The position numbers and the translations under genes were made by a program. Below the pieces are notes generated by a model. The model worked only from the letters and a program-made list of their open reading frames with translations. It made no database searches and was not told the DNA's origin. Shown piece by piece: positions 3,531-39,567 of a stretch of DNA of 64,000 nucleotides; position 1 is the stretch's first letter, and each line of letters begins with the position of its first letter. The DNA is from Rhytidiadelphus loreus (Eukaryota > Streptophyta > Bryopsida > Hypnales > Hylocomiaceae). The stretch covers positions 46,995,025 through 47,059,024 of the forward strand of contig OX344763.1 of NCBI GenBank assembly GCA_947034895.1. Direction: 5' to 3'.

Positions 3531-3636
3531 TTCTGCATTAGATCTAAAACACTACATCTCGTGTAGGATGTGCAAGTATTTTATGTAGATTTAATGATTT
3601 GATTATAGATAAATGTTTTATTATTGTTTTCTAAGG

Positions 3637-3670
3637 TCTAGGGTTTAGGGTTTAGGGTTTAGGGTTTGGG
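3637..3670 (+). repeat. Interstitial telomere-like tract
   Basis: About four consecutive plant-type TTTAGGG units. Shorter tracts occur at 16440-16458 and, as the complement, around 55950-55970. Such tracts are common in plant promoters and at repair scars; they do not indicate a chromosome end here. Confidence 0.8.
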
Positions 3671-3834
3671 AACTCCTTCACATTGTGAGAATAATTCTTC
3701 CATTGCCTTGCCATGTCTTTGATATGAACTGACGCCTAACATTTATTACCAATTTAGTAAGTGAAATAAGGAAAAATCAATTAGAATCTACTCCAGATGC
3801 TAATTAGTGGGGTCAGTTCTTTGAAATGGTTGTT

Positions 3835-4330: not shown

Positions 4331-4521
4331 GCGACTTTGGGTACTTAAGCGTTAGCCCCACTTCCAATTCTCAACTTACTTTAGCCTTGCGCACTGTCTT
4401 TCACTTACCTTCAAGTAGCTGGATGGGTGTCCGTGGGCTAGGGTCTCAATTGAGGGGGGAATTTTTGCCCTTTCAATCTACGAATTTTGAACTGGGCTTT
4501 TGAATTATTTTGAAGTACAAC

Positions 4522-6069
4522 ATGGCTTTTCCACATGAAGGCAACACTACAAGGAGAAAGTCTTTATGGGATCTGGACCTCGATGATCCAATTTTTTTCG
4601 AAGTTCTGATAGCTGTAAATGAAAACAAAGAAAGAGGGAGTGAAGAGTGTCAGAAGGGCAAGAAGCAGAAGTCTGCACATGACAAGGACTCCAACTATCC
4701 TCCCCCCAAGTTATACCCGATATGCATACGAAGCGTGTCTCTAGTGGTACGCAGGGAAAAGTGTACAATTCTTGGAGGCAAGCTATTTGAGGTGTCCTAC
4801 AACTGGTAGTGTGGCCTTGTCAAATGATTTACAGGCATGGATTTTAACCAAGCTAAAGGGATCCGATGATTTTGCAGATATTGACTTAACGTATTCTTCG
4901 AGACTATTTGAATGGCTTGATAACACATTGAAAGCGGTGATGTTCAATACCAAAAAATTGATGAAGGAACATCGACCATTACTTCCAATAGTAGAGGAAT
5001 CAGAAGACATCAAGGCATTCCGACAAAAGATGGAGTGGTGGTCCAGCACAGTGAAGAAATAGGCAAGAGGCTCAGCAAGGTTTTTTAAGTGGAAAAATGC
5101 AACAGTGTAGGCAGCATTTGCATGAGATGGTGGATTGTATGTCACATGGATCCCCGATACGGCAAAAGTGGTGCCCCTTAGTGCTTTTGAATGTGAAGGG
5201 GGGTATGCAAAAGTGCATAAGGTACGCATTGAAGGAATGGATACAATTCCAAGCTACATCGCTTTTGCAGGGAAAATATCCAAGGCAATAAGCTCACGCG
5301 AGGGGAGAGCGCAACAATCCATGGAGGCCCTTGCATGCCCCTTAAACCACCCTAGAATCATTAAGTTTTTTGCCATTCATTCTCGTACAAATGAAGCGTA
5401 CACTTTGTGGTGGAATGGGGGCCATTTGAATGAGTTGAGGCATTTAGATCATTCTGTATCACCAACCATTGACTGGTATGAAATGCAAAAAGCCACAAGA
5501 CTTCCTAAAGAGAAACAAAAAGAACTTGGTCTCTTCCGAAGGCACAAGGCAAAGTTAGCATGGGCTTTAGTATATGTGACAAATCTCATGCACAAGTGCC
5601 GCGTGCTACACAATGACTTGTCTCCCATGAACATCATGTTGCATTTTCCGGATTATTCAAACGACATAATCAACATTGGAATTTGTGATTTTGGAGTATC
5701 AAGTCGTTTTGACGAAAACATGCCTTCACATTATGGAAGGCCATCTGAGGCCGAGAGGGATCAATATCGAGAAGGTCATTGGTGGGTTGCCCCGGAGTTG
5801 TTTTATGCATATGGACCTCCAAATTCCGATACAAGCATACCGATCATGCAACAACGGTATAAATATATGCAACAGTCAGACTCGTATTCTATTGGAAAGT
5901 TGACCGAATGGATGAAATTGGTGATATGGACGACTGGGACAAGGATTTGTTCAAGAGCCGCGAGGGATCAATGTACTTCGGAATGAAGTTGCGTGAACTC
6001 GTGAACCCTGACCCAAAGAAGAAACCAACATGTATAGAGATCACAAATTCCCTTATGTCTCCACCATAG
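4522..6069 (+). pseudogene. FunK1/CRN-like kinase-domain pseudogene, copy 1
   Basis: The ATG at 4522 opens a frame whose start resembles the paralog at 36414 (MAFPHEG...SLWDLDLDDPIFFEVL versus MAGQGSG...SVFEDLDAIFEVV). A kinase domain follows at about 5135-6069: a degenerate glycine loop (GGYAKVHKV), a CFAG-like FAGK region with the beta-3 lysine, TLWWNGG, the catalytic loop HNDLSPMNIM, the metal motif DFG (CDFGVSS) and an APE-like APELF. The loop resembles fungal FunK1 and atypical plant kinases rather than receptor kinases. The frame breaks near 4770-4800, at a TAG at 5060-5062, near 5130 and near 5900; the last segment (MDEIGDMDDWDKDLF...) is in another frame, ending in TAG at 6067. The catalytic residues survive, so decay looks fairly recent. 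Confidence 0.8.
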
Positions 6070-7860
6070 TCCATGATGCCCCCCAAATTGGTGTTCCAAG
6101 ACTCACCTTTGTAATAGAATAGTCCAGAGCAAGACTTTAGTGGTACAAGCAATGAGCTTGGTGGCCAATTATGTGTTGCTTACTTTGTAATATTTTCCTA
6201 TAATATATGAAGCAATTTTAAACCACGCGCATTGTCTTTAGAAAAACAATTACTCAATGGGCTATTTGTCAAATTATATATATTGAATATGGCCTTTAAA
6301 CATTGTTATGCAAAGTGTAACAACTTTTGAATTCAAATGTTCTTGGTCCTTTTTGATTCCATAGTATATAATGGATGCAAGGAAAATAAGAAAATGAAAA
6401 TAAATTAGTTGGTAATTGATGTTGAAGATTTGTATTATTTCTCAAGTAAAACGTGCTAGTATGCAATTGAAATGAGTTTTACTTCCATGGTCATTGAATT
6501 CAAATAGTTGTGCTTTCAATCCCTAAAAAAATCTAAGTCATACATCATTTACATTATCTTATTATTTTCTCTATTCCCAAAAAATAAAAGCGAGTTGGGT
6601 TTTTTTTCCTATTTATTCTAATTCAAATATAGGAAAAATAAATTGTATACTTTTTTAGACTTTTCCTTTTTATTCGTACTTTACCTATTTCAAAATAGAA
6701 GAGAGATGTTTTTTATTTATTTTTTTAACCTTTTTCGCTCTCTTCCTATTTTTTCTATTTGGAAAAAAGGAAGTTCATTGACTTCTAGCCACCATTTTCT
6801 TTTTTTTTGACAATGAAACAAGAGTTGATATTGCAAAATAGATATGTAGTCCCATAATTGTTGTCATTTATTAAACACACAATTTGAGAAAACTTGAATG
6901 AATTCAATAATAAATGTAAATCAGGTTTTACCACATATATTATTTCTAGTAGCATAATGTTTCTCTACAATATTCTTTTTTTTGGTATATGTCATCAAAA
7001 TTGATAAAAACACACATTCTTTCATAGATGGTTGGAGTATGATATAAGTCCAGCAATGACTTTCATTTATAGATTTGTATCCGTACAAGAAATTTAGTTA
7101 TGAGGCATGTAATTTACCAAAATTAGTGTCTGTAACATAGTATGTAATTTGAGTCTACATCAAAAAAAATACATAATGAACATCTCATGTCAAAACAATT
7201 ACAAAGACATTATTGTTACAATTGCAATGGTTAATAATCATAACATTGGTTATTAACAATTAAATTAGTTATTAACAATAAAATTAGTCATTAACAATAA
7301 AATTAATAATTAACAATAAAATTAATAATTAACAATAAAATTAATAATTAACAATAAAATTAATAATTAACAATGAAATTAATTAATAACAATAAAATTG
7401 GTTAACAACAACTTCTTTTAAAACAATTGCAAAGATTTAACTTCTGTTCAGATAATCAATAAGGAATCCATCTGTACCACAACCCACCTCAACCCTAATG
7501 GCTCCCCAAATATAGTATAAACTAGTATTCTATAAATTTAGCAACACAAATGGGATTGAGCTCACAATCCATTTTTTTTTCCTAGCGATTTGGTGCTCAA
7601 AAGCAACAAAAAATTTAGGCCAACTACAAGCTATAGGAATTTTTTAGTAAAATTTGGATGAAATCGCCACAATGTAAATGAAAATAGAATTATAGATACG
7701 TAGTATCACATTTTCTATCCAGTACGTGGATGAATGTTGAAGCTTGGAGCACCCCCCTAACATTTAATATCGCCACTTTGCCATTTCATGAAAAATGAAA
7801 AAAAAATGTCACAATCTATAAACATGTATTAAGAAAGAAAAGAAAAGTCCATGCATTAAT
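6070..7860. other. AT-rich intergenic DNA
   Basis: No gene recognised. It holds homopolymer runs and the tandem repeat at 7255-7395. Confidence 0.6.
7255..7395. repeat. AT-rich tandem repeat, about 18-bp period
   Basis: Units of the type attaacaataaaattaata recur about seven times with small variations (ttagtt, ttagtc, ttaata). A simple minisatellite. Confidence 0.8.
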
Positions 7861-7929
7861 AGACGGACCCGTGGTTGCCCACTCGCCCTAGCTCCTTGGA
7901 CCCGCGGCCAACATTGTTGCCTTTTTTAG

Positions 7930-21639: not shown

Positions 21640-24004
21640 GGGCCCAAACCCTTCGCTCACGCTACTGCACGGGTATTGCGGATTGAGAGGGGGCTTTGTA
21701 CCAGGATGCCGCTTGTGGTTGGTGGGGCGACTCTTTCCGCTTTTATTTGGAGCAAGTGACGGGCAATACAGGCGTTGTCTTCTGCTTCCCTCGTAACTCT
21801 CATCTTGGTCACAAACTCTAGCAAACCTTGCAATGAAGCCTTGCTGGAGGAGACGGATACCTGGCCCGTACTTGACCCCATGCCCAAATTCTCGAGGCCA
21901 TATGCGTATATCCATGGGAATTGTGGGCTTGGTGCACTGTCTAAGTTTAGGCTGTGTGAGGAAGCAAGTTTAGTAGGGGTGGGTGGGTTCAAGTTATCTT
22001 TCATCGCTAGAGAGGGAGAAAGGCCCGTTGGGGTGTCCACAAATTTTTTTGATTCTTGGTAAACTAATAAGTCTTCTATTGCAGTCTCGTGCGCTTCCAT
22101 CTTGTCCCTTGAATCTTTTCCCGGATGGACGAAAATTATATTGCTAGAAGATGGCACAAACCCTAGTAATCTCAATGTCCTCTTTGCTGGTTCAGTTGCT
22201 ACCGCTGGCTGCGCTCGTGCCCCACTGTGTCTACTTCTGGCCCCTTCCCTTGGCATTTCGTCAGGGACCTTTGCTTGAGTTTTTGTCCCCTAGCTCATAG
22301 GAGATTGAAGTGTGGATTCGGGACTCATTAGAGGAGCACTCCCCTTGTCTCGTGTGATTCCGGGGTTGATGGTCGGCTGGAGGTTATTTGGCGACCTACC
22401 TTCATACTTTTCCTTGTCTTGGATCACCGCTTCAAGCATTGCGTAGTCATCGATGTAAAGTGGAAATTGGTATGGTTGAAGGATGGGAGGGGGGGGGGGA
22501 GGATTGGGGAGGTTACCACCTCGGGGGGGGCACTTAGTTCTACTATAACAAACCACGTGCGAACAAGTGGTTTCTGATAAACTATAATTTCAACCTAAAA
22601 TTTTGAACATTGTTTAATAATGACTATAGCTTTCTATTGCCAAAATTTCCAACTCATATAAAATATGAAATGATTTCTAGAAGAGAATGAAAATGAACTA
22701 AAATGGCATGTTTTTCAACTCAAATAATTATAGAGGACACATTTAGATGACCATTGAGTCAATATTCAACTCAAAATGAGCTTTCAATAATGAGTTATTT
22801 TTAGAAATTTTTTGTTCATTTTTTAGACAATTTTTTCTTAGGGGTGTGAAAGTTATTTTTCAGTTCTATAATGTATCTTTTTACTTCAAAAATTTGTAAC
22901 TAATTATTATTAACAAATAAAAATATCAATAATTCAAAACATAAACTTTCAAAGTAGGAAAATCTATTCATATTTTTTTAATTTTTTTTAATTTAAAAAT
23001 TCAAAAAGTATATAAGGGGTCCAAAGTTTTGTTTGCACGTGGTTTCTAATGGACACTCTAAATGACCCCCCCGAGGTTACCACATCTAGCCAATCTTTGA
23101 CACTTTGTTTTGCGATCAGGGCTTTGTGGACTCTGTTGTGAGTCGGCCCAAGCTTTAGGATGTCTCCAAGCATTAGCTGTAGGGGTCTCTATACTTCTAT
23201 TGTGTATTGGAAGTCCATTGGTTGTATTCCCTCCTCGCTTGATGTCTTGCCTTCCACGGCTCCTACATCTTGCGAATGTTGTGCTCTCAATGGGATGCTT
23301 GGACCTTCTCGACCGCAATAATTGTTCCCTTGGGGCGATCGATCGCCTTCCACCCCTCCGTTCTCTATTGTATTTTGCTCTCACCTTCATTGGTTTCTTG
23401 TTGTGGCGCCGCTCAATCACTGTGAAGCCAATCACGTCACTGTTCTGGTCTGACTCTTCCCTATGATTTACGTGGTGACCTCCATTTGCGGTGTTGGTCT
23501 TACGTTGCGGTTGTGGGCGGGAGTGTGATTGGGGTGGAGGAGTAACCTTTGATCTGCCTAGTGTTTTGCCTTGAAGCAGACAATCTGTCTTTTGTATGTG
23601 TATTTGTAGCATCTCAAGCAACGGATTTCTTCTTGGTCGTAGTTCACGAGAACTTCGATTGTTGTCCTTGAAATGTAGGTAAGTTCTAGGGATGAGATTC
23701 AAGCTTTGTTTGGGTCCAGTGCCACTTTGAACCTTGAGTCACCATGGGTACCGCCCTCATAGTCGGCTTCCACCTCCATGCCGATCGTGGTGCCGATGTA
23801 TCCTATAACTTCCTTGGCTTTTTCCAAGAGATCCAACTCAAGAAGCTCAATGAGATCCATACTGGATCAAACAATGTTGGTGGATTCCTAGGGTTGAACC
23901 CTAGGATCCTGTTCTAAAATACAACCTACCCTTGCTTCACCTTAAGTCGGGAGAGGCGTAGCACCTTGCGGGCATTCTCTAAAAAGTTGAGTTTGGTGTA
24001 AGTG
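21640..24004 (-). pseudogene. LINE ORF1 (DUF4283/zinc-knuckle type), decayed
   Basis: Broken minus-strand frames encode a DUF4283-like region near 23700-23990 (GYIGTTIGMEVEADYEGGTH), then INYDQEEIRCLRC-like residues near 23600 that replace a Cys-rich knuckle, then a low-complexity Pro/Arg/Ser tail to about 21650. Such ORF1 proteins bind the LINE RNA. The N-terminal part continues beyond the 15-kb insertion at 39041-39170 (DYWLNELEKFMGRDAILLAK). Multiple stops and frameshifts are present. The 556-bp element at 22520-23075 interrupts the tail. Confidence 0.65.
22520..23075. mobile_element. Non-autonomous TIR element, 556 bp, in the LINE
   Basis: Terminal inverted repeats start CTCGGGGGGG on both sides and extend to a shared AACCACGTGC at about 40 bases. 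The 8-bp target duplication GTTACCAC lies at 22512-22519 and 23076-23083. The 8-bp length fits hAT, although the termini are not the usual CAGGG. The interior is AT-rich and noncoding. Confidence 0.75.
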
Positions 24005-24029
24005 CAGGGCTGTCATACCGGACTATTCA

Positions 24030-24165
24030 GAGTGATCGGACCGGACGGACGGACGGTCCGGACGGTCCGGACACCTTTCATTTTTGAAATTTTCCAACAC
24101 TGAAATCAGGGCGCGGACGTTTCCGTCACGGCGGGGATGTCTTGGACAGGGCGGGGACGCATCAG
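24030..24165. repeat. Subterminal CpG-rich repeats, left end
   Basis: Runs of CGGACGGACGGACGGTCCGG and related words follow the left terminus, with ggggcggggacg-type words at 24110-24150. The mirror block at the right end is 38975-39015. hAT transposases usually bind short subterminal repeats, so these are candidate binding sites. Confidence 0.6.
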
Positions 24166-24209
24166 TTTAATCCGAATTTTTGTAGAATTTTTGTACTTCA
24201 TTTACGAAT

Positions 24210-25165
24210 TCTTGCTTTCATAGGGTGAAAAACATTCTCTGCTGCCATCTTTGATGCCCTACCTAAGGCTAAAAAATTGCTATTTTAACATGAATTTTTT
24301 TTCATAAAATGACCTCTTTGCTATTAATATGTTGTACCAAATTAGAAGGCCAAAAGATTTACATATAAAAAGATATTCACAATCTACCAACATGTGTACT
24401 TGTGTGGTTCAGACTTCAGAGAAACAATTTCAATGCTACCAACTCCCGGAAATTGAGAAATTAGAATTTGGCCATGAAATTTGTGGCATGAGATCATAAC
24501 TCTGTTGATAATATTTGTGTTAAATTTCAAGTTCAAAGGATTTGTCCATAAAAAGATATCAAAAATCTACCAACGGACAAATGTATTTGAGACTTGAGAG
24601 AAACAACTTCAGTGGTGCCCACTTTGACACCTTCCGAGGGACACAATTTTCTTTTTGATATCATGAAATTTTTGTCATGAGATCACCTCTATGTTCATAA
24701 TATGCGTGCAGAACTTCAAGTTCTAAAGATTTTTCTAGAAAAAGATATTTGAAATCTACCAACATGTGTGGGTGTGAAATAATTTCTAGGAACTACCTCT
24801 GTTGGTAGATTTCCAGTATCTTTTTATAGGCAAATCCTTTGAACTTCAAATTTGACCCACATGTTATCAACATAGACATGATCTCATGCCAAAAAATTCA
24901 TGGCCGAATTTAGATTTCTCAATTTCTGGGAGTTGGTACTTGGTAGCATTGAAATTGTTTCTCTGAACCACACAAGTACACATGTTGGTACATTGTGAAT
25001 ATCTTTTTATGTGTAAATCTTCTGGCCTTGAAATTTAGCACACATGTTATTAGCAAAGAGATCATTTTTTCAAAAGAATTTCATGTTTAAATAACAATTT
25101 TTCAGCCCTTCAGAAGGCATCAAAGATGATAGTAGTGAATGTTTTTTTCTACGTGAATGCAAGGA
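24210..25165. repeat. Large inverted repeat with about 360-base arms
   Basis: The left arm (about 24215-24570) contains catctttgatgcc, ggccaaaagatttacatat, accaacatgtgtacttgtg and gcatgagatcata; the right arm (about 24790-25160) contains the same words reversed and in reverse order (ggtagatttc...ggcatcaaagatga). Similarity is roughly 80-85% by eye. A loop of about 200 bases contains a further partial repeat. It lies between the left terminus and the transposase 3' end. Confidence 0.85.
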
Positions 25166-25518
25166 TAGTAATAAATTAAGTACACCTTACTTACAACATT
25201 CAAACTATACAATATAACTACACTCATGAATGTCATCTTCATGCATGGCAAATGTGAGAATTCTACAAACACAATTGGAAACTTTTTTATTTTAGATAAC
25301 CAAAAACATTTTTATATTTCAAACGTTGTTCAGTACAATAACAAGTTCACAACACAATGAATATACTGCTCTCAAGATACGCCTCCTCTTCTACTGGTTA
25401 TCTAAGATTCTCCTTCTTCTTCTTGTAGATCTTCATTACTTCATGTTTCAATTGGTGCAACTGTCTTGAACTCATGATGAATGAAGGTCTACAGAACACA
25501 AATGCTGTCAGGTGCCCC

Positions 25519-28500
25519 TCAATTGTTGAAACGACTTGATCTGCGAACTTCTTGTATACCCGGATCTGGTAATGCAACATCTCGAATGACCACATCATCA
25601 TCTGCTGGTGCCTCATTACAATCAGGGTCGTCTTCATCATCACCAACTTCACTAGTTCCAAGTTCATCTTCTCCACAGTCACCGTCTGTGGTCCACTGGT
25701 TTTCCACTTCCGAGTTCTCATTTCGAAGCTCCACAGCTGTTTGACCATGCCTACGACTATGTTTAAACCTCTTGTGCCGTTGAGCTCTAGGTTCCTCCGC
25801 GTCAAAATTTATAATGGGGCCTCCTTGTACTCGAGGAACGACATACGCTAGAGTGGACAAAGTTGGTCCTGGGACATACGTATTCAAAAATGGCTCTATC
25901 ACCACGTTCGGGTCTCGGACCCCAATTCCTAGAAGAGGGCGTTTAGGGGGCCTCGATGATGACGCTTCGTTATTGTTTCGTCCACCTCTAATATCACGGC
26001 CTCCAATCGTTGCACGACCTCTTGCTCTTCCACGGACGAAACTCCTTCCACGTCCTTGTTGATATTCACCCATAGTGTGGTGAATTGCGGGTTGAAGGGC
26101 GGTATGGTGTCTACCACCCATTGTAACATTTGAAATGCTTTGAGGCGTCATTGCAACATTTCCCACTGAGCCTAGCACTTCTTCGGAAGGTCGACAAGGA
26201 GCACTTGAAGTTGCGGGAGATGAAGGGTTAGAAATAATAGTATGCACTGCAATTGGTGGTGGTATATGGGCTTCGTCTTCAAGTGGGTCAGTAAACGCAA
26301 AAACATCATTGTGATCTAAATGTTCAGGGTCAAAACGCGTTCCACTACTAGAAAACACTGAAATTTCAACACAACTCTATTGATTCGATCGCGTTGTTCC
26401 GGTCACTATACAACCAAACTTTGTTGATTTCAACAGAGTTTGGTTGTATAGTGACCGGAACAACGCGATCGAATCAACAGAGTTGTGTTGAAATTTCAGT
26501 GTTTTCTAGTAGTGTTCTTCCCACTACATTAACCTCCACAACATGTCTTGTGATTGGTCGTGCCATCCTTGTATTTCCAATGTTCTGGCCATGGCATCCT
26601 CCAACAACTTTGTTGCTATTGCGGCCCCCCACTCCTCTAGGCCCCCTATTGCCATCACGATCGCAAACGGATCCTTCAGTATTCTGAGTTGCATTGTTCC
26701 TCAGATTCTCACTGCCATTTCCATTTCCCCCTTCGTTTTCCAAAGGGAGGTTGTCGTCATTGTTCGAGATAACATTATCATCATCGGCGTCCACTGCGGC
26801 CGGATGATCACTCTCGAAAGACGATGACAAAGGTTGCACTTCAGAAACAACTACATTTTCATCGCCAATGGGTGTAGGACTTCGGTGAGGATCGGCTCCC
26901 CAAGGGCCCCAGCGATCAGGGAGGACTTCCTCTTCTACTCATGACCATCTCCGTAGTAATTTCTAGCTTCTTCAAGGTGATTAGCCCCCGCCCTCCACAA
27001 CTCTGGATTTGGTCGGTATTCTCGGGGTGCTCGGTTAGCTTCTACATCAGCCTCTTCCTCTTCCTCAGCTACCATCGCGTCAAATTCACGATTGCGTTCA
27101 GCCACTGGAACGGGGCCAAGGGCATCTGGATCAGAATCCTCCGAGAGGATATTAGCATCATACCAACGAACAGGATCGGCCCCTGGTCTTTGCTGAAGTA
27201 CACGGCTATTGGTATAAATATATACCAATGACTCAACCTTCTCGGGGGCTAACCGATTCCGGACCTTGTTGTGGACGAAAGAATACATACTCCAATTCCT
27301 TTCACATGAACATGCTGAACACGTCAATGACAAGATACGAACGGCAATCTTAGATAGTGCTCGATCTCCAACCCTATGCCACCATTGGTGAGGAAGCATA
27401 TGTGTCGCTCGGATGTCAGGTGTCTCTGCTGCATTGTATGACCCCGTGCCCTCCTCGAATTCTGTTAATTCCGCCAACACGTTGTTAAACTTCACACCCA
27501 CTACATTTTCCATTTTGCGGATGACTCGATACAATGCACGGAGGGCAACTCCATCAGCCCTAAGTGTCACGTTATCCAAGAGATACGGATTTAAAAAGGC
27601 CCCAGCATAGTGAACATCCGTGAATACCATGTCCCACCTGGATGTGAAAGACTCCTCCATGGTGGTGGCTATGTCATCTCGTAGGTTGAAGGGTGGCCCT
27701 CTTAAAGGAAACACATGGGTTCTCAAATTGTACATTACGAGCCATGCCCGACCCATAGCTGGTTCTCGGCCATCAAATATGCGCAATGCCTTCAACACGT
27801 CTTCAGTCATGTGCACGTAATTTGCACATCGTTGCCAGAAGCCCACGTCTTTGATAGTTGACACCACATTACGTGAAGCTGTAGCTGCTTGCTCCGCATT
27901 TTGTTTGTCTCGCAGACCATCAAAGTAATTTTGAACGCGCGCATGGTCTTTTAACCACAGCAGTACTCCGCAAAGTTTCTCCAATCGGTGCAACATGAGA
28001 AAATTACAAGCAAAGCGGGTTTCGTTGGGCACTACTAATTGAAGGGTCGGACTCAACTCCCGGAATACCGACATGGTGGCGTGATGGTTCCGAATGTACT
28101 GGCACAATCTTCTTGCCCTTTGAATTAAATCTTTGAATTCTGGTACTTTGGCCCAATCTTCCAACATGAGATCCAAAGCATGTGCTATGCACCCTGCTTG
28201 AAAATGTGTGGATACGTGCAAACGATATCATCCAATGCTCCAAGCATATTCGCTGCATTATCTGTACAAACCTGTGTCACGTACTTTGAACCCACTTTCT
28301 CAATGAATACCTTCATCTGGTCCGCTATGTAGCGCATGGACTTCTTTTGCCCGGTGGTGTCAATGGCCCCCAAAAATACATCACCAGTAGGGCACGACAT
28401 CATTACATTCATTAGAGGCCTCCGGTTCACGTCATCCTAGCCATCAGTGCATATTGTCACCCCATAATGTTTCACTACAAAACCAACTTTGGTTTCAATT

Positions 28501-29198
28501 TGCTTCTCGATTTGCAACCTCTTCGGTTCAATCAATTTCGTCCTAAACTGATGGTAAGAAGGTAGACTATATTCAAACCTTGCCATTGAGGTTGCCCTCA
28601 CTGCCTCAATAAAGGCTGGATTTCTTGCCACATTAAATGGCACGTTCGCCTCGTAAAAAAACGATGCCCACTTGTCATCCAATTCCTTCCTCTTCGCAAC
28701 ATTAAAAGCATCCTTCATACGTTGCTGAAGTAATGACCCAGATCTTGTGGAATTTGATGCAATGAGACTTTGGGACCTCTGTATTGCATCATTTCCTTCA
28801 GGGAGAGTAACCCCTTTAGCTTGGGCGTCACCTGAACCCCCTCCCGTCACTTCGTTTTGAAAGGATTGGCTTGAACTTGCAACTGGAGTTGCTCTTGATG
28901 GACCAGTGGGAATTGATTCTCCTTTATACATGTCCTCGGGGCTCAATCGTTGAGAAACAAAGTTTGCACAATTTGCAAATCGGTGGCGCACGGCTCGCGG
29001 TGCATTACGACAAATTGACCTCTCGGACTTCGCGCCATATCCAAAGTGAGCAAAAGCGCGCTCGCGTTTATAGCTGAATGTTGCATTGCAAAATACACAA
29101 CTCACTTTCCCCCCGTTCTCAGAGAAATTATACCACGGTTCCCATTCTTTTGTTTGCTTTCGTTGACTTCCCATTGCGTTCACGACGAATGCAAACAT
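25519..29198 (-). pseudogene. hAT transposase with BED zinc finger and long C-terminal tail
   Basis: The start is ATG at 29198 or 29174, after an acceptor near 29222. The order is: a BED-type finger (SCVFCNATFSYKRERAFAHF), a linker, the first catalytic region (TICTDG), TDNAANM, the CIAHALDLMLEDW segment, and the hAT dimerisation region (CSCERNWSMYSFVHNKVRN at about 27270-27310). An acidic, Gly/Arg-rich tail follows to 25519. The enzyme class cuts and pastes the element via its terminal repeats. Lesions: TAG at 28437-28439 in place of an expected Trp codon, a frameshift near 28190-28220, a frameshift near 26935, and a CACTA-type MITE at 26343-26514. The tail after the dimerisation domain (about 430 residues) is unusually long for hAT. 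Confidence 0.85.
26343..26514. mobile_element. CACTA-type MITE, 172 bp, in the transposase tail
   Basis: The ends CACTACTAGAAAACACTGAA and its reverse complement are identical, and nearly the whole element is one palindrome. The 3-bp target duplication TTC lies at 26340-26342 and 26515-26517. Outside it the transposase reading frame matches on both sides (VVGR on one side, TRFDPEH on the other), so the insertion is clean. Confidence 0.95.
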
Positions 29199-29434
29199 TT
29201 TCTTGGAGGAGGTAGAACTGTAGAAGAAGCTATTACACCAAATGAAAAGGACAAAATAGTAGTTAGCACCAATCAACTGCTTGAACTGACTTTTACATCA
29301 CCTCAACAGCTAACTAGGGCCATTTGTCACCCAAGTAGACTCCCAAGGAGCTCAAAGTGAATTGAAGTCCAAGATGATGAGGCCAAGATGACAAATGTAA
29401 AGAAGTCAATCCGACAAGCTTGGCTTTATAGCCT

Positions 29435-29570
29435 GGGAGTGTAGGGGCGCGGACCTCTTCTGCAGGGGCAGGGATGTCAGGGGCGCGGACGTCACACAAT
29501 TCCGACGCGTCCACGCCCCGAGCGATGCGTCCACGCCCTGGCGCGACGCGTTACCGGATGGCAGGGTGCG
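29435..29570. promoter_or_regulatory. GC-rich ACGT array upstream of the transposase
   Basis: Words of the type ggggcgcggacgtc and, reversed, gcgtccacgccc recur about six times. The array lies 240-370 bases upstream of the transposase ATG. GACGTC contains the ACGT core recognised by plant bZIP factors (established), but a promoter role here is inference from position. Confidence 0.5.
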
Positions 29571-29599
29571 GAGGGCCTACCATAGACTTTGGTATGAAT

Positions 29600-31130
29600 T
29601 CAGTTGTGGGATTCTTCCTTCCCATAGAGAGAGGAGAATCAACTAATGTAGTCAGCTCTTAATTTGAGCACGGGGAATATCTTCAAGTCAATGGCTGCAT
29701 TAAGAGGTCCAACTACTTTTTGAGTTCAATGACAACGTATTAAAGCATGTCACTCCCTTCTTGAGGCCAAACTTCAAGTTCTTGCCTTCATCAAGCACTT
29801 GAGAAGTAGGACCCATGTAAAGTTGGAACCCAAAATAAAAATAGAAAATGAAATTGAACTTCCAAATAAGAAGGACTAAATTTGTGTAACTAAAATCCCA
29901 AAGGATTTCGAGTCCTAATCAAAGTCAAGGTACATAATTGTTTAAATTCAAGTTCAAAGTTTATATTTCATTCTTATTAAGAAAAGGTATTTGTGATTTT
30001 GGATTTGAAGTTTACAAATCAAACTATTACCAACGTATACTTCTCAAGCTTTTGGTTTAAGTCTTCATTTTTTAAATACAAAGCTACAAGGTTTTGGATT
30101 TAAATCAAATACAAATCATAATGCTTTAGAATATGCTTGAAGGGGTTTTTTCCGTGAAAAAAGGGTACAAGGATTTAGGGCTTAAAGACTTTAACCAAAA
30201 TTTCTTGTAATGGGTAAAATAGGAGGGGTGGGTATTGAAATGAAATACTAGTTAAGTGATTTTTTAATTCAAGGGCAACGGTTCATTTCATTATTTTGGG
30301 TATGGGGATAGCAAAGCGGTTTGGGTCTTTGGGAATGAAATGAAGCAAAATTGTTTATGATTTCAAATATTCAATCATTAGACTCCACCCTCTAATTTGT
30401 GTAATGGGATCCTAGAGCTCTAAACTCTAAAGCAAGTCTAGGACTTAGGAGGGGTGGGTATTGAAATGAAATACTAGTTAAGTGATTTTTTAATTCAAGG
30501 GCAACGGTTCATTTCATTATTTTCGGTATGGGGATAGCAAAGTGGTTTGGGTCTTTGGGAATGAAATGAAGCAAAATTGTTTATGATTTCAAATATTCAA
30601 TCATTAGACTCCACCCTCTAATTTGTGTAATGGGATCCTAGAGCTCTAAACTCTAAAGCAAGTCTAGGACTTAGGAGGGGTAGGTATTGAAATGAAATAC
30701 TAGTTAAGTGATTTTTTAATTCAAGGGCAACGGTTCATCTCATTATTTTGGGTATGGGGATAGGAAACCCTTGGAGGGAGTTCAAGGAGGGAGTTCAAGA
30801 CTGGGTTCAAAATTGGAATTGGAATTGGAATTGGAATCCGCGCCCGGACGTCCGCGCCCTGTCGGGACGTCCCCGCCCTGACGTCCCCGCCTTGACGTCC
30901 ACACGTTCACGCCTTGACCCTCGGATGCAAGAACTCTCTCCACCAACGACGGGGGGGAATGGAATTGACCTTGAGATTTGAAATTAGCATGGGATTCTTC
31001 CTTTCCATGGAGAGAGGGAAAGAGGGAAACCAATTAATGTAGTCAGCCATTAATTTGAGCTCGGGGAATTTCTTGAAGTCAATGGCTGTATTAAGAGGTC
31101 CAACTACTTTTTGAGTTGAAAGAGAATTCA
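29600..31130. repeat. Duplicated promoter-like segment
   Basis: A block of about 130 bases at 29600-29735 (gggattcttcc, agagagag, atgtagtcagc, gcattaagaggtccaactac) recurs at 30984-31120 in the same orientation, each time just after a GC-rich ACGT array (29435-29570 and 30838-30915). Related blocks follow arrays at 58870 and 59460 in the second element copy. Confidence 0.75.
30221..30770. repeat. 226-bp tandem repeat, 2.4 copies
   Basis: Units start aggaggggtgggtattgaaa at 30221, 30447 and 30673. The first two are nearly identical; the third stops at about 30768, just before a short GGAATT run and a GC-rich array (30838-30915). Such high identity points to recent slippage or unequal exchange. 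Confidence 0.95.
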
Positions 31131-33625
31131 TGGAAAGATGTGTCTCCTTTCATGTATCGCCCTTGGTCTTCTTCGCTTCTCCAAGGACTTGAGAAATAGT
31201 CCCCACACCCCAAAAATGGGATTTCTAGAGAATTAAAACTAAGTTGCACACTTTCAAGAAAACAAATATAATAAGATGCTAGAAGTTTTAGGATTTGTAA
31301 CGGTAAACAAGGTACTCGTTTTTGAAAATTCAAGTTGAAGACTTAAAGGATGAATGTTATAGTTCTCCAAAATAGAAGCTAAAAGGGTTTGGAATTCCAA
31401 AAAAAAGGGTTTTAGAAATGTTTCGACGGAATTTAAGAGAATTTGAGCAATTATAGAAATTTGGGGTATTCAATGATAACAATTTCAGAAAATTTGAGCA
31501 AGTATGGAATGTATTTGAATTTTTTTATAGAAGCATACCAAAAAAAAGTCCTACTATATTTAGGATAGTAGGATGTGTGTAATTAATTATAACAAATATT
31601 GACTGTTCAAATTTTAGCTTATAAGAATTTCGGATGATGAATGGTGGAGGCAGAAAATGGTCGTTACTCTATGAATTCATTCTTCATGGCAAGTTGGCTA
31701 AATGAGTACATGACTACATGCTTCAACATTTTTACAACAATACAACTTTCCCAAAACAATTCCACCCTACATTCTTAATTTAAACTTTATACTTTACAGG
31801 CTTACAACACAAATTATGGATTACTCTAATATATATTTTGTAATTCATATAATTTTATTTCCACCTTTACCTTTAAGAAATCAGAATAATTTTACTTTTA
31901 TTCCTAAATTATTGTAAAAACAAAAAATAAGAAGAAAAATTATCGGAGGAACTAGCAAAATGTATATAAATTTTGTATATCAATTACATAAAAGGATTCA
32001 TTTGGTTTCAACTTCAAGTTTAGGACGTCAAGATGGAATTTGACTTCAAGTTGTTTCACTTAATTGATACTTTGATGTGGCTTTCTTTTGTGTGAAAAAT
32101 AAAATAAGCAATTGGATTTTTTTTTGGTTCACCTCCATTACTACTTGCACCTCCCCCCAAAATTTCAAATTTTAACCCCTAAAGTCCCATTGTCCCCTGA
32201 GGGGACACTTTAGAATTCGGGCAGGTTTCTATGGGCTGAAATTTTATCCTAATTTTGCAAAACTTTTTTTGAAGATAGAAAATGTAATAAGCTTTGTGGG
32301 AATATAATTTTTATTTCAATCGGTGCCTGGAAGCCAAAGTTATACCACAAGATGCGTAGAATTGAATTCGGTGGGCAGCAAAAGAAATTGAATCTTTAGA
32401 ATGCAATTTTCAGATTTTTGGTTTTTTAAAAGGTTATGTTTGCTTCCTAGAACAATCTCACCATTGGGATTATTGTATTTCAATCCCATCTAAGAGCTAT
32501 TAATTGTTTAGTTTTTCTTTCAATTTTGAACGTGCTTCTACAGTTCTACACTTCTACTTGACAATTTCTTGAAGTATGAAAATGAAGTTGTTATTTTTTG
32601 AATTTTTTTTCATAGACTCCCAACTCAATTCTTCAACACAATAAAATTTTAATTCAAATTCCATAGTACACATTTTTTCTACAAATAGCAATAAAAGTCA
32701 TCTAAAATTGCAGTTTAGTGTTGAAGAAAACTTGTTTTTTAAACTTTGAATGCTCATATAGTCATATCTCTCAATCTGTACGGTCAAACTTCATGAAATT
32801 TTAACCACATAATTTCAAGAAAGTAAATTTCAAGATCCTACGGTTCAGTTTCAAAAATAGAATTTTGTTGGAATCTTGGACAACGTAGTAGAAATGGCAG
32901 TTTTTATTGTTTTTAGACAAAAAAAATGGCATTAGGGGGGTGATTGAATTGTTTTCCTCTTTTTCCTCATATATGATTATATGCTGATTTTCTGCAATAG
33001 AAAGTTAGAAATGATAACAATTAGAAACATTCGCGAACAAAATTGCAATTTTTGTAAATGATATAGAATTCAAAGTTTTAAGCAGTAAAAATACCTGATT
33101 GTTATTCAAGCTAAAATAAGAAATTTTACCATTTTTGGATGGATCAACTCATTCAAAGGTTAATGTATCCCTTCATACATTAACATTAATATATTTGTAA
33201 CAAAATATACATTAATGTTAAATTGTTAATATTTTTTTATATACATACAATAATATTAATACATATATATTTACATGAATATATACCTTCATACACTCAA
33301 AATCTGAAATGCACTTATTCTTAGGCCATAAGTACATTATTATATCCACGCATCACACATGCCATATCATGCAAAGGAATTCAACAATTGAATATATGTA
33401 TTTCATATGCATCATGTAGTACAAAAATTGAAAAGTATACAATACTTTTTCCACGATAAAATATGCATATCCACAAGTCTTTGTCTAATACTGTTTGTAG
33501 TACCGAACTACCAAAGTAGCAATTCTATAAGCCTCGGTAATGATAAGTGCCAAAGTCTATAACTGTATATGCAAAACATGCTTTGCTAATTAGTAATTAC
33601 TAGTTTAGCACACTAAAAAATGCAC
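31131..33625. other. AT-rich noncoding interior of the 15-kb element
   Basis: No gene seen. The part at 32150-32900 is related to 18560-19120 outside the element and to 38390-38940 inside it. Confidence 0.55.
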
Positions 33626-35992
33626 TCAGTCGATGTTCATTGGACTGTTTGCAGTGCCACTAAGTCCAGCCTCGTCGTTGTGTGCGCCGCGTTGCATTGG
33701 AAAATCTTCGTTGGAGCCTAGTTGAAGTCTACGAACCACAGACCGAGTTCTCCTCACTGGTCCGTCTTCTTCTAGAATGGCCCTCATGATTTGTGATTGC
33801 TTGAGACTCTCCAGAGCTCGGCGTGTATCCGGGCTATGTTGTTCAAGCAAAAAATCCAGCCCTTCGTTTCTGAAAGTTTCCCTCCACTCAGATTCCGATA
33901 ATTGAGCAAGCTCCGCGGGGTCGGGCATGTCAGGGTCCTCCCCAATACGAATTCTATTGTCATCGGTGACTCGAACTCCATCAACGCCCCATAACCATCG
34001 CCGAGGGTGAGGTCCAAATTGAAACTTGAGTCCAACCTCGTCCCAATGTCCATTGAAGCATTGAAAGAAAAAATTCCGTCGTCTTTGGCTATGCTTGTCT
34101 TTCATCGGAATCAAATGGTGGCAGACTTGGACAATTTGATCGGGGTCAGTCTCCCAACCACATTCAGCAGCGACCTGTGTCTTGTCCAACGATGTCATTT
34201 GTAATTTCCAACTCCACACCAAGTCTGTTCCCCACATTCTACGGTGATCTGGGGCATTCGTGGCATTGTATTCCCAATGTGGTGGCATGTATGGGACCAA
34301 GCCAAACAACTCGTACAAGCGCTCGTGGAAGGGAGCCTTGCACATTGCGCACCGACGACGAACAATCATGAAACTGATGAGGCAAAATGGGTGGTATACA
34401 TGGTTGCACGTGCCCAACTGCATTCCACCTTCAAGGCCAAATGGATTCATACAAATGAGACATGTGGTCCCGTCGTGCACAAAACTTGAAGGATTTGGCC
34501 ACTCCAACAACGGGTTGCCTTTGTAGTTGACCTTCGACCCAAGTTGGTTTTTGAAATCCCAATTGTGTTTGGACCAATCAATGATTGTTTTTCCACCATC
34601 AAGCTCAATGATTGCCATGTTGGGACTGAAAAGATCATCTACAAGGGCCTATGAAGTCAAGCCAAACACCCTTTCTTGATTGTGCTCACTGTAGTAGTGG
34701 TCCAATTTCTTGAACTCTGCTACCAGTTGTCGTGTCTTGTCAACGGTGAACACGCATGCCAACTTCCACTAGTAGTACTGCTCCACCAAGGCATGCAAAC
34801 GATTTTGTAATGTTTGATTTTCGCCTCGCAAGTTGTTGAGCTCAAGGTTGTTGTCCATAACCATGCCCCGAACTTCAGTCTGCATTGGTACGTTGCCGGT
34901 GGCAATTACTTCGGGAAAGGCCAATGAATCTTCTTGTGTAGACATGGCAGCATCACCTGGAGCATTTTGAACCGGAATTTGAGAATCCCGAGGAGGTCCT
35001 TGTGCATGTCCTCGTGGATCCTGACCTTCGTTCATCATTTGTGCTGCTTGTAGAGCTTGCCGAAGTTCCTCTATGTCACGTGCTTGTTGAGCAATTACTC
35101 TGTCTTTGAGCGTGATGTCTTCTCGTAACTTGCCCACATCTTCATATAGAGAATGTAGTTCATCACCTCGGTCTTGTAACTGCACCCTCAAGCTTTGTAT
35201 GGTGTCTGCAACAGCCATGACATCAACAACTCCAAGAGTTGGTTCATCAGGTGCTTGGAATTGCGCCTGAGTAACTCCAAGTACTGGTTCAACGGGGCCC
35301 TGGACCTCTACACAAATATTTGTTTCTGGAAGTTGTTCACGAGGTGCACGTTGCGTCCTTCTCCTTTGTGCATGTTGTTGTCCTCTGGGGGTTAATTCCA
35401 CCACAACATGAGATCCATCAGAGTCATCGTCGGTAGTAGAATCCGCCGTCTCATATGTGTCAGGCGGCTCAATACATGTGTTGACCCTGCCCAGCCCTCC
35501 TTCGGGATATCTCATAACCCCCCTTGGAATCATTCCATTTGCTAGTGTTGGTATCTTGATACCATATGCTGTGGTTGGCGTGCCCTTCAAAGTGGACCAA
35601 TCCACCCGCTTGTTCAATCTCACCTCCACATGTACACCTCGTGCAATGAAAAGGTGAATTTCATTCTTTTTCACAGTGGGTTTTTTGTATAACACTTGGT
35701 ATACTTCGATGCATCTTTGTTTAAAGGCCTCATCGATGCAATGTTTCAAATTTGCTTTATGAAATCGGCGGTGGTAGTTGTGTCGCTCTTTAGGGAAGGC
35801 CTTGTCAATGTGGCACCATTCTATGTAAGTGATGCAAGTTTCGAAACTCCACGGTTCTGGCACGTCATTCCAGCCCCTAAATGCCAGTTTTTTGGGGTTT
35901 CGAAGTACATGTAACCTCTTCCGATGTTTGTTACCCGGCCTTAGTCGAGTCCTATCTCGTTCAGCTTTGTTGGTTCTTGGTGGTGTCACCAT
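33626..35992 (-). pseudogene. RING-H2 / coiled-coil gene carried by the element
   Basis: One reading frame runs from ATG 35992 to the stop at 33626, interrupted only by two TAG codons (34769-34771, after EQYY, and near 34650, after GLTS). The N-terminal part is basic (RTRLRPGNKHRKRLHVL), then a Ser/Asp-rich stretch, then a predicted coiled coil at about 34990-35200 (DRGDELHSLYEDVGKLREDI, IEELRQALQAAQ). The C-terminal part carries CLICMNPF, TCNHVYHPFC and CAMCKAPF, the spacing of a RING-H2 finger (C3H2C3), usually an E3 ubiquitin ligase module. If the TAGs were sense codons it would be one protein of about 790 residues. It may be two genes, but the shared frame argues for one. The family as a whole is unknown to me. 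Confidence 0.7.
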
Positions 35993-36413
35993 CGTGAATT
36001 TTTTTGGCAAAAACCTGTATACTGTAAAAGGCCCTGTACAACGCCAACGACCAGCTCAATGAAGAGGTGGAGGATATGGAATACGCAGGGCGGGGACTAA
36101 TGGGTCAGGGACAGACTTTTATAGTTCTCAAATTTGCCTGTCAGGGCGGGGACGTCTGGGGTCAGGGGCGGGGACGGCTTGGGCGAGGCGGGGACGTGTG
36201 GCGGCCAGGGCGCAAACGTGGGAGGGGCGGGGACTATAAATCCCAAAGGATCCCTCATTTCTTCTTTGCCAAGTCCACGCCCTACGCCTCACACCTTCGT
36301 TTGTGCAAGCGACCCTTGGAAGTGAGTTTGGTGGGTGATTGGGCTTGGTCCACATATAGCACCCGTTTTTTTTTATTTTCTCCGAAACTTTGGTGGTTCC
36401 GAAATATTGTACA
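35993..36413. promoter_or_regulatory. Bidirectional GC-rich promoter region
   Basis: The 421 bases separate the RING-H2 gene (minus) and the kinase-like gene (plus). Between 36085 and 36235 words such as ggggcggggacgt and gggcggggac recur about eight times. A TATA box (CTATAAAT at 36234-36241) follows immediately, 170 bases before the kinase ATG at 36414. The array with a nearby TATA recurs in the second copy at 58460-58900 (CTCTATATAG at 58891). Confidence 0.6.
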
Positions 36414-38031
36414 ATGGCAGGACAAGGGAGTGGGTCATCGGGTCACCGCTCGGTGTTTGAAGACTTGGATGCAATTTTTGAGGTGGTGCCTCCAACCACG
36501 AATGTGTCAGGGGCTTTAGGGTCATCCAATCCCTCATCATCCAGCAGGTCGAAGCGTAAAAACCAACCCAATCCTGACATGCCCCCTCACAAATATGTGC
36601 TTGAGGCTAGAGCAATAGCGGTCAATTTTTACACGCGACGAAGTGTGGGAATGATGTGTAGAGAATACGTGAATTTCAACGAAGAAGGGTACCACAAGTT
36701 GAATGCTGAAGTGCGGCGAGAGTTGGAGACCAAATTTAAAGCATCCGAGCGATTCAACAACTATCAAGATTACTGGTTGCACTCTGAGTGGTTGGATAAA
36801 CAAGTGTCGCAGTTGACCACCAATATTGTGGTGAATTGGTGTTATCACACAAAGAAGAAAGATAATGGTAGTGATTGGGACACGCATGACAAGGAATTTG
36901 CTTCAAGATTGTACCAAATTCAGAAGTTCTCCCAACAATTTTCTTCCTCGCGTAGAAAGAAACAAGCACCATGGAAAGCGACGCTTGAAGACCAAATACA
37001 AGCTCATTGTGTGAGCAGAACATTCAAGTGGTTGGAAAGTTGCGTGAAAGTGAATCCCATGCCGAATCAAACTATGACTGGATCATATGGGACTGTGAGG
37101 AAGGTGGTGCTCACGAGACTACAAAGCATTCCCAGTTGGATTTGCTTCGCCGGGAAGACTTTGAAGACCTCGAATGTGAAGGAGAAGCGCCAAGCTATTG
37201 TAAGCGAGGCGGGGGGGGTGTCCAGTGATACATCCTAGTATCGTAAGACTTGCGTACATCCATCCAAAAACAATGGAAGGCTATACGCTATGGTGGAATG
37301 GAGGGTCTTTGATTTCTTTCTTGGCCAAGTACAACTCAAAAGTGAATGAATCGTTGGATGTGGATGACATCACGAGACAACATGATGCAGGGTTGACGTA
37401 GGAAGAACTTGGTTGGGTTGCAACTTATTGCCGAAACCGCATGAATTTGGCTTTATCATTGCTTGTCATAGTGGAAAAATGCCATGAAGCAAAATATTTA
37501 CACAATGACATTACTCCATCCAACGTTTTGCTCCATTTTGATGAATGGAAAGAAAACACAGTGTACATTGGGATTTGCGATTGGGGGCTTTCTGGTCGAG
37601 TTGTAGAGAAGGAGCCATCAAGGTATGGTTATCAAACCATGGAGGATCTCCAACGGGAGAAAAAACAACGAAAACATGCAGCCCCTGAGTTGTTCTATAT
37701 GTATAGAGAGAAGGAGTCAGAGACCTCACTTGAAGTCATGCAGAAAAAACACTTCTACTCCATGGCTGCTGATGCATATGCAACTGGATGGATAGCATAT
37801 CAAATTTGAAAAGAAGAGTGGGATCCAAAGTATTTTACGACCAAAAACCCAGAGCAATATCAGCATTTGAGGATTCAACTACTGAGCCTCCAGAAAATAG
37901 ATGTAGGCAAGAGGGCATCTGTGCCTGATGTTCTAGACACTTTGAGGAAGGTACCTCACAGTTGGACTATGCCCGACTGTTGTTATCGTACATAATATAT
38001 TGTTTTTACTTTTTGAGCTCTAGTATGTGAT
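36414..38031 (+). pseudogene. FunK1/CRN-like kinase-domain pseudogene, copy 2
   Basis: ATG at 36414 (MAGQGSGSSGHRSVFEDL). About 200 residues of a helical N-terminal region precede the kinase domain: GSYGTVRKV (glycine loop), CFAGKTLK (lysine), TLWWNGGSL, YLHNDITPSNVLLHF (catalytic loop, HxDxxxxN), CDWGLSG (DWG instead of DFG) and APELFYMY (APE-like). Lesions: a frameshift in a run of eight G near 37205-37215, TAG at 37399-37401 (GLT-stop-EEL) and TGA at 37807-37809 (YQI-stop-KEEW). The frame then runs on to about 38031. The layout matches copy 1 at 4522-6069. The role is unknown; HxD and N are kept, so the ancestor may have been active. Confidence 0.8.
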
Positions 38032-38960
38032 AGTTTTATAGGCAAACCACACATTTTTGGTTAGAAGAGCATCAAGCATGTGTATTTCATGGTTGCTACA
38101 CATTTCATACATAAAGATATGGACATATGGTGAAAATCTTGTAATATGCAATTTGGTCTTTCTTCCATCAAGACAGTTGTATGACTTCTGTGAATTTGTG
38201 AATGTGTAGTAAACAAAGTAGTAAACAACTAATTAGATTTGAAATTGATTTTTTAGAGTTTGATATACAGAAAAAGGCAAAAAGCTTAGAATCATTTGGT
38301 TTTGATCAATGAGTCAAAAATTATGAGGATTATGAGGATTTTCTGTTTGCGGGCAGTTTTGGATTTCCTGCTCTAAAATAAACTTTGACATCCTTTATCT
38401 TATCCAATTTTCAATATTTTTGGACAAAAATAAAATTATAGGATGTACATACATTATTACAACATTTCGACCATTGGAATTGTAAATTTTCAATTCCATA
38501 TTTAAATTGTAAATAATTTAGTATTTTTAATCATTCTCTAGTACTACCTACTTACTATTTTTTTCCTATATGTTGTACTATTCCAAATGATCTGAAATTT
38601 TTCAAGCATGTGGCCAACTTGTCTAGGAAAACAAATCCAAAGAAGCACCACCATTTAGGTCATTTTTTCATAGAAATGTGAGCTTGTGAAGTGCAGCTGC
38701 CCTGCTTTTCGCAGGGTCAAAAAAATGATTTTAGTTAATTTGAAATTTTGAATGCTTATATCTTGCAATCCACCCGGTGGAAATGTCTGAAATTTTTACC
38801 ACAAGTTTTTGATACTATATAATACAACATCCTACGGTTAGATATGTCAAAAAAAGTTTTTTTATCAAAATTTTGGTAGTTGTACTAGAAATGACAGTTT
38901 TAGAGAGTTTTTGGTGAAAACATAGTGACGGTCCTTTAAGGGTTAAAAAAAGTCAACTTT
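38032..38960. other. AT-rich right-hand interior of the element
   Basis: No gene. Blocks at 38390-38940 resemble 32450-32930 (ggaattgta..tttcaattccat, atcctacggtt, agaaatgacagtttt). Confidence 0.5.
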
Positions 38961-39567
38961 AGTGTTGACCACATCAGATGGGCGAAACGGACGGACGGGC
39001 AAACCGGACGTCCGTCCGGTATGACAACCCTGTGTAAGTGTACCAAACCATACCTCCTTTGCTAGGAGGATGGCATCCCTGCCCATAAATTTTTCCAATT
39101 CATTGAGCCAGTAATCTAACCTGAGGCTAGAAGATGACTCGCCTAGCCAGCATGCCAATACGACATATTATTTGAGATTTTGAAGTATTCATCTTGCTGA
39201 TGCACTACAAGTCCACTAAGCATCATGGCTGGAATCGCTTTCCGGTGACACAAGACTTTGCCTCCTTAGTTTCGAAACGTTCTTGGTGGAAGGACCTCTC
39301 TTGGTACTGCTTCAAACTAGATCATATAGCCACCTCGGCTATTGGCAGTTGTCTTCCATCCATGGGGCGCTCCCGCTCGTCTTAAGTGTCCTATCTCTAG
39401 GCGCTACTACTGCCCATGTCTCTCCTCCTTGTCTCTTCTCACTGGATTCCTCTATAACACCGCGCGGTAGTTTCGCGAGGTCATTTAAGGGTTAGGGTAC
39501 TGCGCAGTTTCTGACAACTGGATTGGTGAACCTATACGAAAACAGACCTAGAATTTTTTGTAAAGTA

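What the first reader, a model, noticed from the sequence alone, without database searches (positions are those of the whole stretch)
24005..39032. A 15-kb hAT-like element that carries a kinase-like gene and a RING-H2 gene
The sequence shows 18/19 matching terminal repeats, an 8-bp target duplication (TGTAAGTG) in a LINE, and inside it a BED/hAT transposase gene plus two other genes. Known plant hAT elements usually encode a transposase only. The extra genes have their own array-type promoter, so they look like integrated parts rather than random captures. I infer a cargo-bearing hAT lineage in which a kinase and a ubiquitin-ligase-like protein may help the element or its host interaction.
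Basis: partly seen in the sequence, partly recalled or inferred. Interest (0 to 1): 0.9.

Follow-up and report, generated by a model that had tools for sequence, protein, structure and literature searches.

The report
Multi-gene hAT transposon family in plants
A plant jumping gene of the hAT type carries, besides its transposase, a protein kinase gene and a RING ubiquitin-ligase-like gene, and this set recurs in dozens of copies across the genome, so the two extra genes are standing parts of the element rather than an accident of one copy.

Summary
Window 24005-39032 is one copy of a ~15-kb hAT family: near-perfect terminal repeats, 8-bp target duplication, hAT transposase. In the window's own 407-Mb genome the would-be refutation fails. 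Three further copies are closed by matching termini and 8-bp duplications: two of about full length carry transposase, RING and kinase genes in the same places; an 11.4-kb one lost the transposase core but kept RING and kinase. Of 83 RING copies listed, 61 have the kinase within 5 kb, all 61 divergent; 56 have kinase and transposase within 20 kb. Four ~6-kb elements have the termini but none of the genes. The window's 'RING-H2 gene' is the C-terminal part of a longer gene; all three genes are broken in this copy. A second, more abundant repeat family carries relatives of both proteins, many in open frames, in another order; its transposase is not identified. Each family has its own short motif arrayed before the genes seen, as in the VANC/VANDAL anti-silencing arrangement. 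I infer, untested, that the extra genes form an expression or anti-silencing module; recent copies show no selection on them. New variant of a known kind.

The parts
23997..24004 (.). left copy of the 8-bp target duplication TGTAAGTG
24005..24023 (+). left terminal inverted repeat
24109..24160 (+). array of the GGGCGGGGACG motif near the left end
25519..29174 (-). hAT transposase gene (DUF659 and dimerisation region, long C-terminal extension), broken in this copy; frames of 1149-1240 aa without stop in 6 other copies
26343..26514 (.). 172-bp inverted-repeat insertion (CACTACTAGAAAA termini, TTC duplication) inside the transposase gene; absent from L011
29445..29545 (.). motif array upstream of the transposase gene
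30220..30767 (+). 226-bp tandem repeat, a region shared by full-length and ~6-kb elements
30841..30917 (-). further motif array
33626..35992 (-). RING gene: N-terminal Nd domain, coiled-coil-like middle, RING-H2; two premature stops in this copy
36088..36235 (+). motif array between the divergent RING and kinase genes (putative bidirectional promoter, not tested)
36414..37995 (+). protein kinase gene, one frameshift and two premature stops in this copy
39014..39032 (-). right terminal inverted repeat
39033..39040 (.). right copy of the target duplication TGTAAGTG
1..7879 (+). partial copy of a second repeat family, with a kinase relative (about 4523-6114) and GGGCGACTGCGGGT arrays at 2630-4299
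58330..58413 (+). terminus of another related hAT element (80% to the right end over 85 bp) inserted in a Copia-like ORF
58468..59270 (+). GGGCGGGGACG motif array behind that second terminus (12 hits)

Best explanation
SHOWN: a family of ~15-kb hAT elements that encodes, besides a hAT transposase, a protein kinase (526-aa frame in copy L006) and an Nd-coiled-coil-RING protein (~790 aa) as standing genes, lying head to head across a motif array, with short gene-less derivatives. INFERRED: the transposase moves the element by cut and paste at the terminal repeats. The motif arrays before the genes are binding sites of an element-encoded protein, most likely the Nd/RING protein (the transposase is the alternative). 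The RING and kinase proteins act on host chromatin or silencing factors at those arrays and keep the element's genes expressed, much as VANC does for VANDAL elements through its own arrayed motifs.
For: Recurrence with matching termini and different 8-bp duplications; near end-to-end colinearity at ~96%; 61 of 83 RING copies with the kinase within 5 kb, all divergent, and 65 of 83 with the transposase within 20 kb, all on the same strand. Open frames elsewhere, counted by me from listings: RING, 809-aa frame without stop in 7 of 122 rows; kinase, full-length match in a 544-555-aa frame without stop in 10 of 88 rows; transposase, frame of at least 1149 aa without stop in 6 of 102 rows. Kinase motifs in the 19 copies whose 3' part was read: HND 19, DWG 18, APE 17. 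Protein-level constraint between the two families: pN 0.53 vs pS 0.77 for the kinase, 0.48 vs 0.80 for Nd, third codon positions differing most. Motif arrays: 25 hits in the window against 0, 0, 1, 0, 0 in five shuffles, at the left end and before the genes, and a different motif in family 2. VANC binding to family-specific tandem motifs (PMC5735166, passages).
Against: Among recent copies there is no sign of purifying selection on the extra genes: observed over neutral missense/synonymous ratio for the kinase 3' part 1.67 (single-copy changes) and 0.97 (shared), kinase full length in 4 copies 1.60 and 0.34 (the latter on 5 changes), RING 0.88 and 0.81, transposase 0.75 for single-copy changes in 3 copies. 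By eye, no copy in the scored lists has all three genes open. The L006 kinase, though an open frame, has changed residues in two kinase motifs (NWG, APK). Gene-less elements have motif arrays too, so the arrays may serve transposition rather than gene expression. The Nd model (pLDDT 72.5) has no credible match in the PDB (best E 5.5), so DNA binding has no support from fold. Binding of any protein to the arrays was not tested.
Confidence: 0.6

Rival explanations
1. Passenger cassette: an ancestral hAT picked up a kinase/RING cassette once and it has been copied along without helping the element.
For: No purifying signal among recent copies; L007 and the gene-less ~6-kb elements show that parts are dispensable in a copy; a stretch at 32737-32904 resembles the right subterminal region at 66%, a possible fusion scar.
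Against: Relatives of the same proteins recur together in a second family, many in open frames; protein-level constraint between families; motif arrays before the genes, different per family.
Confidence: 0.22
2. Host-beneficial cargo: the kinase and RING proteins serve the plant and the element spreads them, as ToxhAT does with a fungal effector gene.
For: RING ligases and kinases are typical host regulators (recalled); ToxhAT is a hAT-like cargo carrier (PMC6737239, passages).
Against: Many scored family-1 copies are broken, which does not look like upkeep of a host function; 35 of 36 protein hits of the kinase lie at 35-72% identity and look like one family, the other is a generic kinase at 26% (candidates must share 5-residue words, so more distant host kinases would be missed).
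Confidence: 0.08
3. The kinase/RING genes come from an integrated DNA virus whose remnant became part of transposons.
For: A weak poxvirus kinase match (E 0.019); multi-gene layout with long single-exon frames.
Against: No relative confirmed in the viral contigs for either protein (9 and 28 pattern matches, none confirmed; records near this genome may be left out there); among the ORFs given to Pfam no capsid or polymerase match was seen in the element.
Confidence: 0.04

Closest known systems
Plant hAT transposons (Ac/Tam3-like, DUF659 type)
   Same: 8-bp target duplication, CAGGG-type inverted termini, DUF659 and hAT dimerisation domains, non-autonomous derivatives
   Different: about 15 kb, with two additional standing genes and motif arrays before the genes; Ac-type elements carry a transposase only (recalled)
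VANDAL elements with VANC (Mutator-like, Arabidopsis)
   Same: extra element gene plus a family-specific short motif tandemly arrayed in noncoding parts, diverging between related families (PMC5735166, passages)
   Different: hAT rather than Mutator; similarity of kinase, Nd or RING proteins to VANC was not tested; anti-silencing untested
ToxhAT (fungal 14.3-kb hAT-like element)
   Same: hAT-like element of the same size carrying several genes within inverted repeats (PMC6737239, passages)
Pack-MULEs and other DNA transposons with captured fragments
   Same: extra coding sequence inside a DNA transposon
   Different: captured fragments are usually partial and copy-specific (recalled); here long genes recur at fixed positions

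Membership tests
hAT superfamily | 8-bp target site duplication | tested here: met
   exact and all different in 8 of 11 elements examined (incl. the window copy); in L005, L006 and L012 no closed pair was found
hAT superfamily | short terminal inverted repeats | tested here: met
   first 14 bases: 14 of 14 in 7 of those 8, 13 of 14 in the window copy
hAT superfamily | transposase with hAT dimerisation domain and DUF659 | tested here: met
   PF05699 E 1e-8 and PF04937 E 1e-32 in L011, both above curated cut-offs
hAT superfamily | N-terminal BED zinc finger | tested here: inconclusive
   no Pfam BED match; cysteines and histidines are present by eye only
hAT superfamily | catalytic D/D/E residues | not tested
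   not aligned to a solved transposase; no PDB sequence match at E 0.01
VANDAL/VANC-like anti-silencing element | Mutator-type transposase | tested here: not met
   transposase is hAT
VANDAL/VANC-like anti-silencing element | family-specific motif arrays in noncoding regions | tested here: met
   family 2 read in two places only
VANDAL/VANC-like anti-silencing element | element protein that binds the motif and removes methylation | not testable with these tools
   needs EMSA, ChIP and bisulfite sequencing
Protein kinase with usual motifs | HxD, DFG-type and APE motifs | tested here: met
   HND 19 of 19, DWG (in place of DFG) 18 of 19, APE 17 of 19 copies
RING-H2 E3 ligase | RING domain above curated cut-off | tested here: inconclusive
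   window protein 23.0 bits vs cut-off 27.3; relatives P0064 27.3 and P0038 25.7 vs 27.3

The most novel reading that the evidence does not exclude
A kinase plus Nd/RING module with its own arrayed DNA motif is a self-contained regulatory kit shared by different mobile element families of this plant: in one it travels with a hAT transposase; in another, far more abundant and with many open frames, it is arranged differently and no transposase was found at a fixed distance. Each family has its own version of the arrayed motif, as expected if a module protein and its target co-evolve to give private anti-silencing or transcription control.
Probability: 0.3. Interest if true: 0.9.

Novelty: new variant of a known kind. 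Interest (0 to 1): 0.74.

Why it matters
hAT elements are usually thought of as transposase-only (recalled). A family that keeps a kinase and a RING gene over dozens of copies, shares relatives of both with a second family, and marks its genes with a private motif array is a testable case of accessory genes in a cut-and-paste DNA transposon, possibly a second, independent route to the sequence-specific anti-silencing described for VANDAL elements. Kinase and ubiquitin ligase would point to a post-translational handle on host silencing.

Tried and rejected
Random capture in one copy: rejected by recurrence. Kinase/RING as a nested insertion of this copy: rejected by colinearity. Viral origin: no viral relatives confirmed. 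Family 2 as a hAT: hAT dimerisation hits (148 of 150 rows used) show no fixed distance to 194 family-2 loci, though they cluster: 23 pairs within 45 kb against a random mean of 6.8 (maximum 16 in 300 draws), 7 within 20 kb against 3.0 (maximum 7). One hAT frame of 1149 aa (C2:61530979) lies about 2.6 kb from family-2 promoter DNA (C2:61533549 and on); I could not read it, so a hAT partner in some copies is not excluded. The hAT transposase group at 44-45% identity (11 rows) had no RING2 or KIN1 copy within 20 kb (KIN2 only partly pasted there). A SWIM-like ORF next to the family-2 copy (7863-8216) belongs to another abundant repeat; I did not compute its distances to family 2. Nd fold: moderate model, no PDB match; RING part model poor (pLDDT 45.7). 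Literature: (listings only: 1 of 1, 20 of 32, 20 of 103, 6 of 6, 10 of 50 and 10 of 64 papers shown) brought up no hAT with kinase or RING genes; preprints and most subscription papers are not held.

Rows left out before counts; 6 of 122 RING rows (five second pieces, one on contig C469); the 83 'RING1' copies include three at only 50-80% identity; 13 of 88 kinase rows (further pieces of listed copies; the window copy was added by me from window coordinates, making 76); 8 of 102 transposase rows (second pieces); only 54 of 136 KIN2 rows. One search used all 136 KIN2, 125 Nd and 34 RING2 rows and 148 of 150 hAT rows. One search left L014 out of the full-length kinase count (insertion). Genome listings score only the best candidates, so they are not censuses.
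Full report
THE ELEMENT. Window 24005-39032 is bounded by near-perfect inverted termini and an 8-bp duplication. It holds, left to right: a left end with a short motif array, a hAT transposase gene on the minus strand, an array upstream of it, a 226-bp tandem repeat, a further array, an AT-rich spacer, a RING gene on the minus strand, a motif array, and a kinase gene on the plus strand ending about 1 kb from the right terminus. The transposase core of copy L011 has DUF659 (E 1e-32) and the hAT dimerisation region (E 1e-8). The RING gene is longer than the finding says: relatives join its RING half to the ORF upstream. In this copy the RING gene has two premature stops, the kinase a frameshift and two stops, and the transposase frame breaks plus a 172-bp CACTA-like insertion.

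OTHER COPIES. The window lies in a 407-Mb assembly of 489 contigs whose five largest are 51-94 Mb; a TTTAGGG-type repeat at 3635-3667 fits a plant, the species is not known to me. A 101-base right end found 40 scored copies of 203 candidates. Of 30 right ends held, 19 match the 15-kb type over ~1.6 kb; 11 match the ~6-kb type, two of them (L009, L030) only over 0.8 and 1.1 kb. I fetched 20 kb inward from ten. With the window copy that makes 11; eight are closed by exact 8-bp duplications and matching termini: 15028 (window), 15118 (L014), 14615 (L011), 11402 (L007), 6640, 6617, 6031 and 5702 bp. For L005, L006 and L012 no such pair was found. L011 and L014 carry transposase, RING and kinase at 90-96% protein identity in the window's layout, with breaks of their own (L014 has a ~0.6-kb insertion in its kinase); L007 and L006 keep RING and kinase but have lost the transposase core; L002, L003, L004, L005, L008 and L012 have none. 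The window copy and L014 each align with L011 nearly end to end at ~96%, except ~0.6 kb of left subterminal sequence in the window copy.

GENOME-WIDE LINKAGE. Protein searches gave 122 RING rows (119 of 1211 candidates scored), 88 kinase rows (82 of 1159) and 102 transposase rows (98 of 1259). After merging pieces, 61 of 83 RING copies have a kinase within 5 kb, all 61 on the opposite strand at a median of 3.1 kb; 65 of 83 have the transposase within 20 kb, all on the same strand at a median of 6.6 kb; 56 of 83 have both within 20 kb. With 76 kinases in ~395 Mb, chance would give about 0.2 RING copies within 5 kb (my arithmetic). Frames without stop exist for each gene: RING 809 aa in 7 of 122 rows, kinase 544-555 aa in 10 of 88, transposase at least 1149 aa in 6 of 102 (counted by me), but by eye I saw no copy with all three open.

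SECOND FAMILY. The window's left part (1-7879) is a partial copy of another family with a kinase relative at about 4523-6114 (36% to the element's kinase in local alignment; 28-30% over full length for the L051 copy). Its kinase is abundant: 136 of 1477 candidates scored, most at 91-92%, about 72 rows with a 535-553-aa frame without stop (counted by eye). Stretch L051 shows kinase, then an array, then a gene whose N-terminus matches the Nd domain; that gene was scored in 125 copies of 2284 candidates at 97-100%, more than half of them with 501-aa frames without stop (by eye). Kinase and Nd lie on one strand 3-4 kb apart in 69 pairs (75 within 9 kb); Nd and a 42-44% RING relative lie on opposite strands 3.0-3.5 kb apart in 19; kinase and RING2 6.5-7 kb apart in 18, plus one at 10 kb. 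13 of 34 RING2 rows have frames of 838-866 aa without stop (counted by me). Its ends and transposase are unknown. Relatives of kinase, RING and Nd proteins also occur in other data sets: 36, 16 and 27 proteins, mostly on short metagenome contigs whose context I could not see.

ARRAYS. GGGCGGGGACG (one mismatch allowed) has 25 hits in the window against 0, 0, 1, 0, 0 in five shuffles: left end, before the transposase, at 30849-30882, between RING and kinase, and 12 behind a second related terminus at 58330. It recurs at the left end and inside the other seven elements read, the gene-less ones included (five shuffles each: 0). GGGCGACTGCGGGT (two mismatches) has 23 hits, all at 2630-4299 before the family-2 kinase (shuffles 0, 0, 1, 0, 0); L051 has 12 before the Nd gene and none of the first motif. 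So each family has its own motif, arrayed before the genes seen. VANC proteins bind family-specific motifs that form tandem repeats in noncoding parts of VANDAL elements (PMC5735166, passages seen). The likeness is in arrangement; similarity to VANC proteins was not tested. That gene-less elements keep arrays fits binding by the transposase as well.

SELECTION. Between families kinase and Nd are conserved as proteins while synonymous sites are saturated (pN 0.53 and 0.48, pS 0.77 and 0.80). Among recent family-1 copies no purifying signal is seen (ratios 0.75-1.67, one of 0.34 on five changes), as expected of decaying copies but giving no proof of use; kinase motifs are nonetheless kept (HND 19, DWG 18, APE 17 of 19), with the open-frame L006 copy altered in two of them. 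Mean pairwise divergence in the kinase 3' part is 2.1% (0.7-4.1%).

WHAT IT IS. A hAT family with a standing three-gene set. Shown: recurrence, linkage, termini, open frames in some copies, arrays. Inferred: cut-and-paste movement by its transposase, and a role of the kinase/RING module with the arrays in keeping the element expressed. I give the family about 0.95, the module's usefulness to the element about 0.6 and the anti-silencing mechanism about 0.3. Papers: passages of PMC5735166, PMC6737239 and PMC6431247 were seen; all others as listings. Statements on Ac, Pack-MULEs and typical hAT content are recalled.

Noticed in passing
58330-59290: A second, related hAT terminus inserted in a Copia-like ORF, followed by 12 hits of the family-1 motif; I could not delimit its other end.
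   Followed up: partly
1-7879 and L051: Second repeat family with kinase, Nd and RING relatives, many in open frames, at 194 merged loci among the rows scored; class and ends unknown.
   Followed up: partly
7863-8219: SWIM-like zinc-finger ORF fragment (motif recalled, no Pfam match) that belongs to another very abundant family (150 scored of 1550).
   Followed up: partly
26343-26514: 172-bp near-perfect inverted repeat with CACTACTAGAAAA ends and TTC duplication: a CACTA-like miniature element (family name recalled).
   Followed up: yes
32161-32904: Spacer of the element resembles 18567-19242 (70-74%) and, in 32737-32904, the right subterminal region (66%): possible relic of an older element end.
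   Followed up: no
12166-12915: 249-aa minus-strand ORF with a possible PD-(D/E)XK nuclease motif (recalled, not tested); no meaningful Pfam match.
   Followed up: no
50394-51456: 365-bp tandem repeat, 2.9 copies; also an 11-bp array of 47 copies at 16950-17465.
   Followed up: no
L002, L003, L004, L008: About 6-kb elements with the same termini, a shared tandem-repeat region and none of the genes: non-autonomous derivatives.
   Followed up: partly
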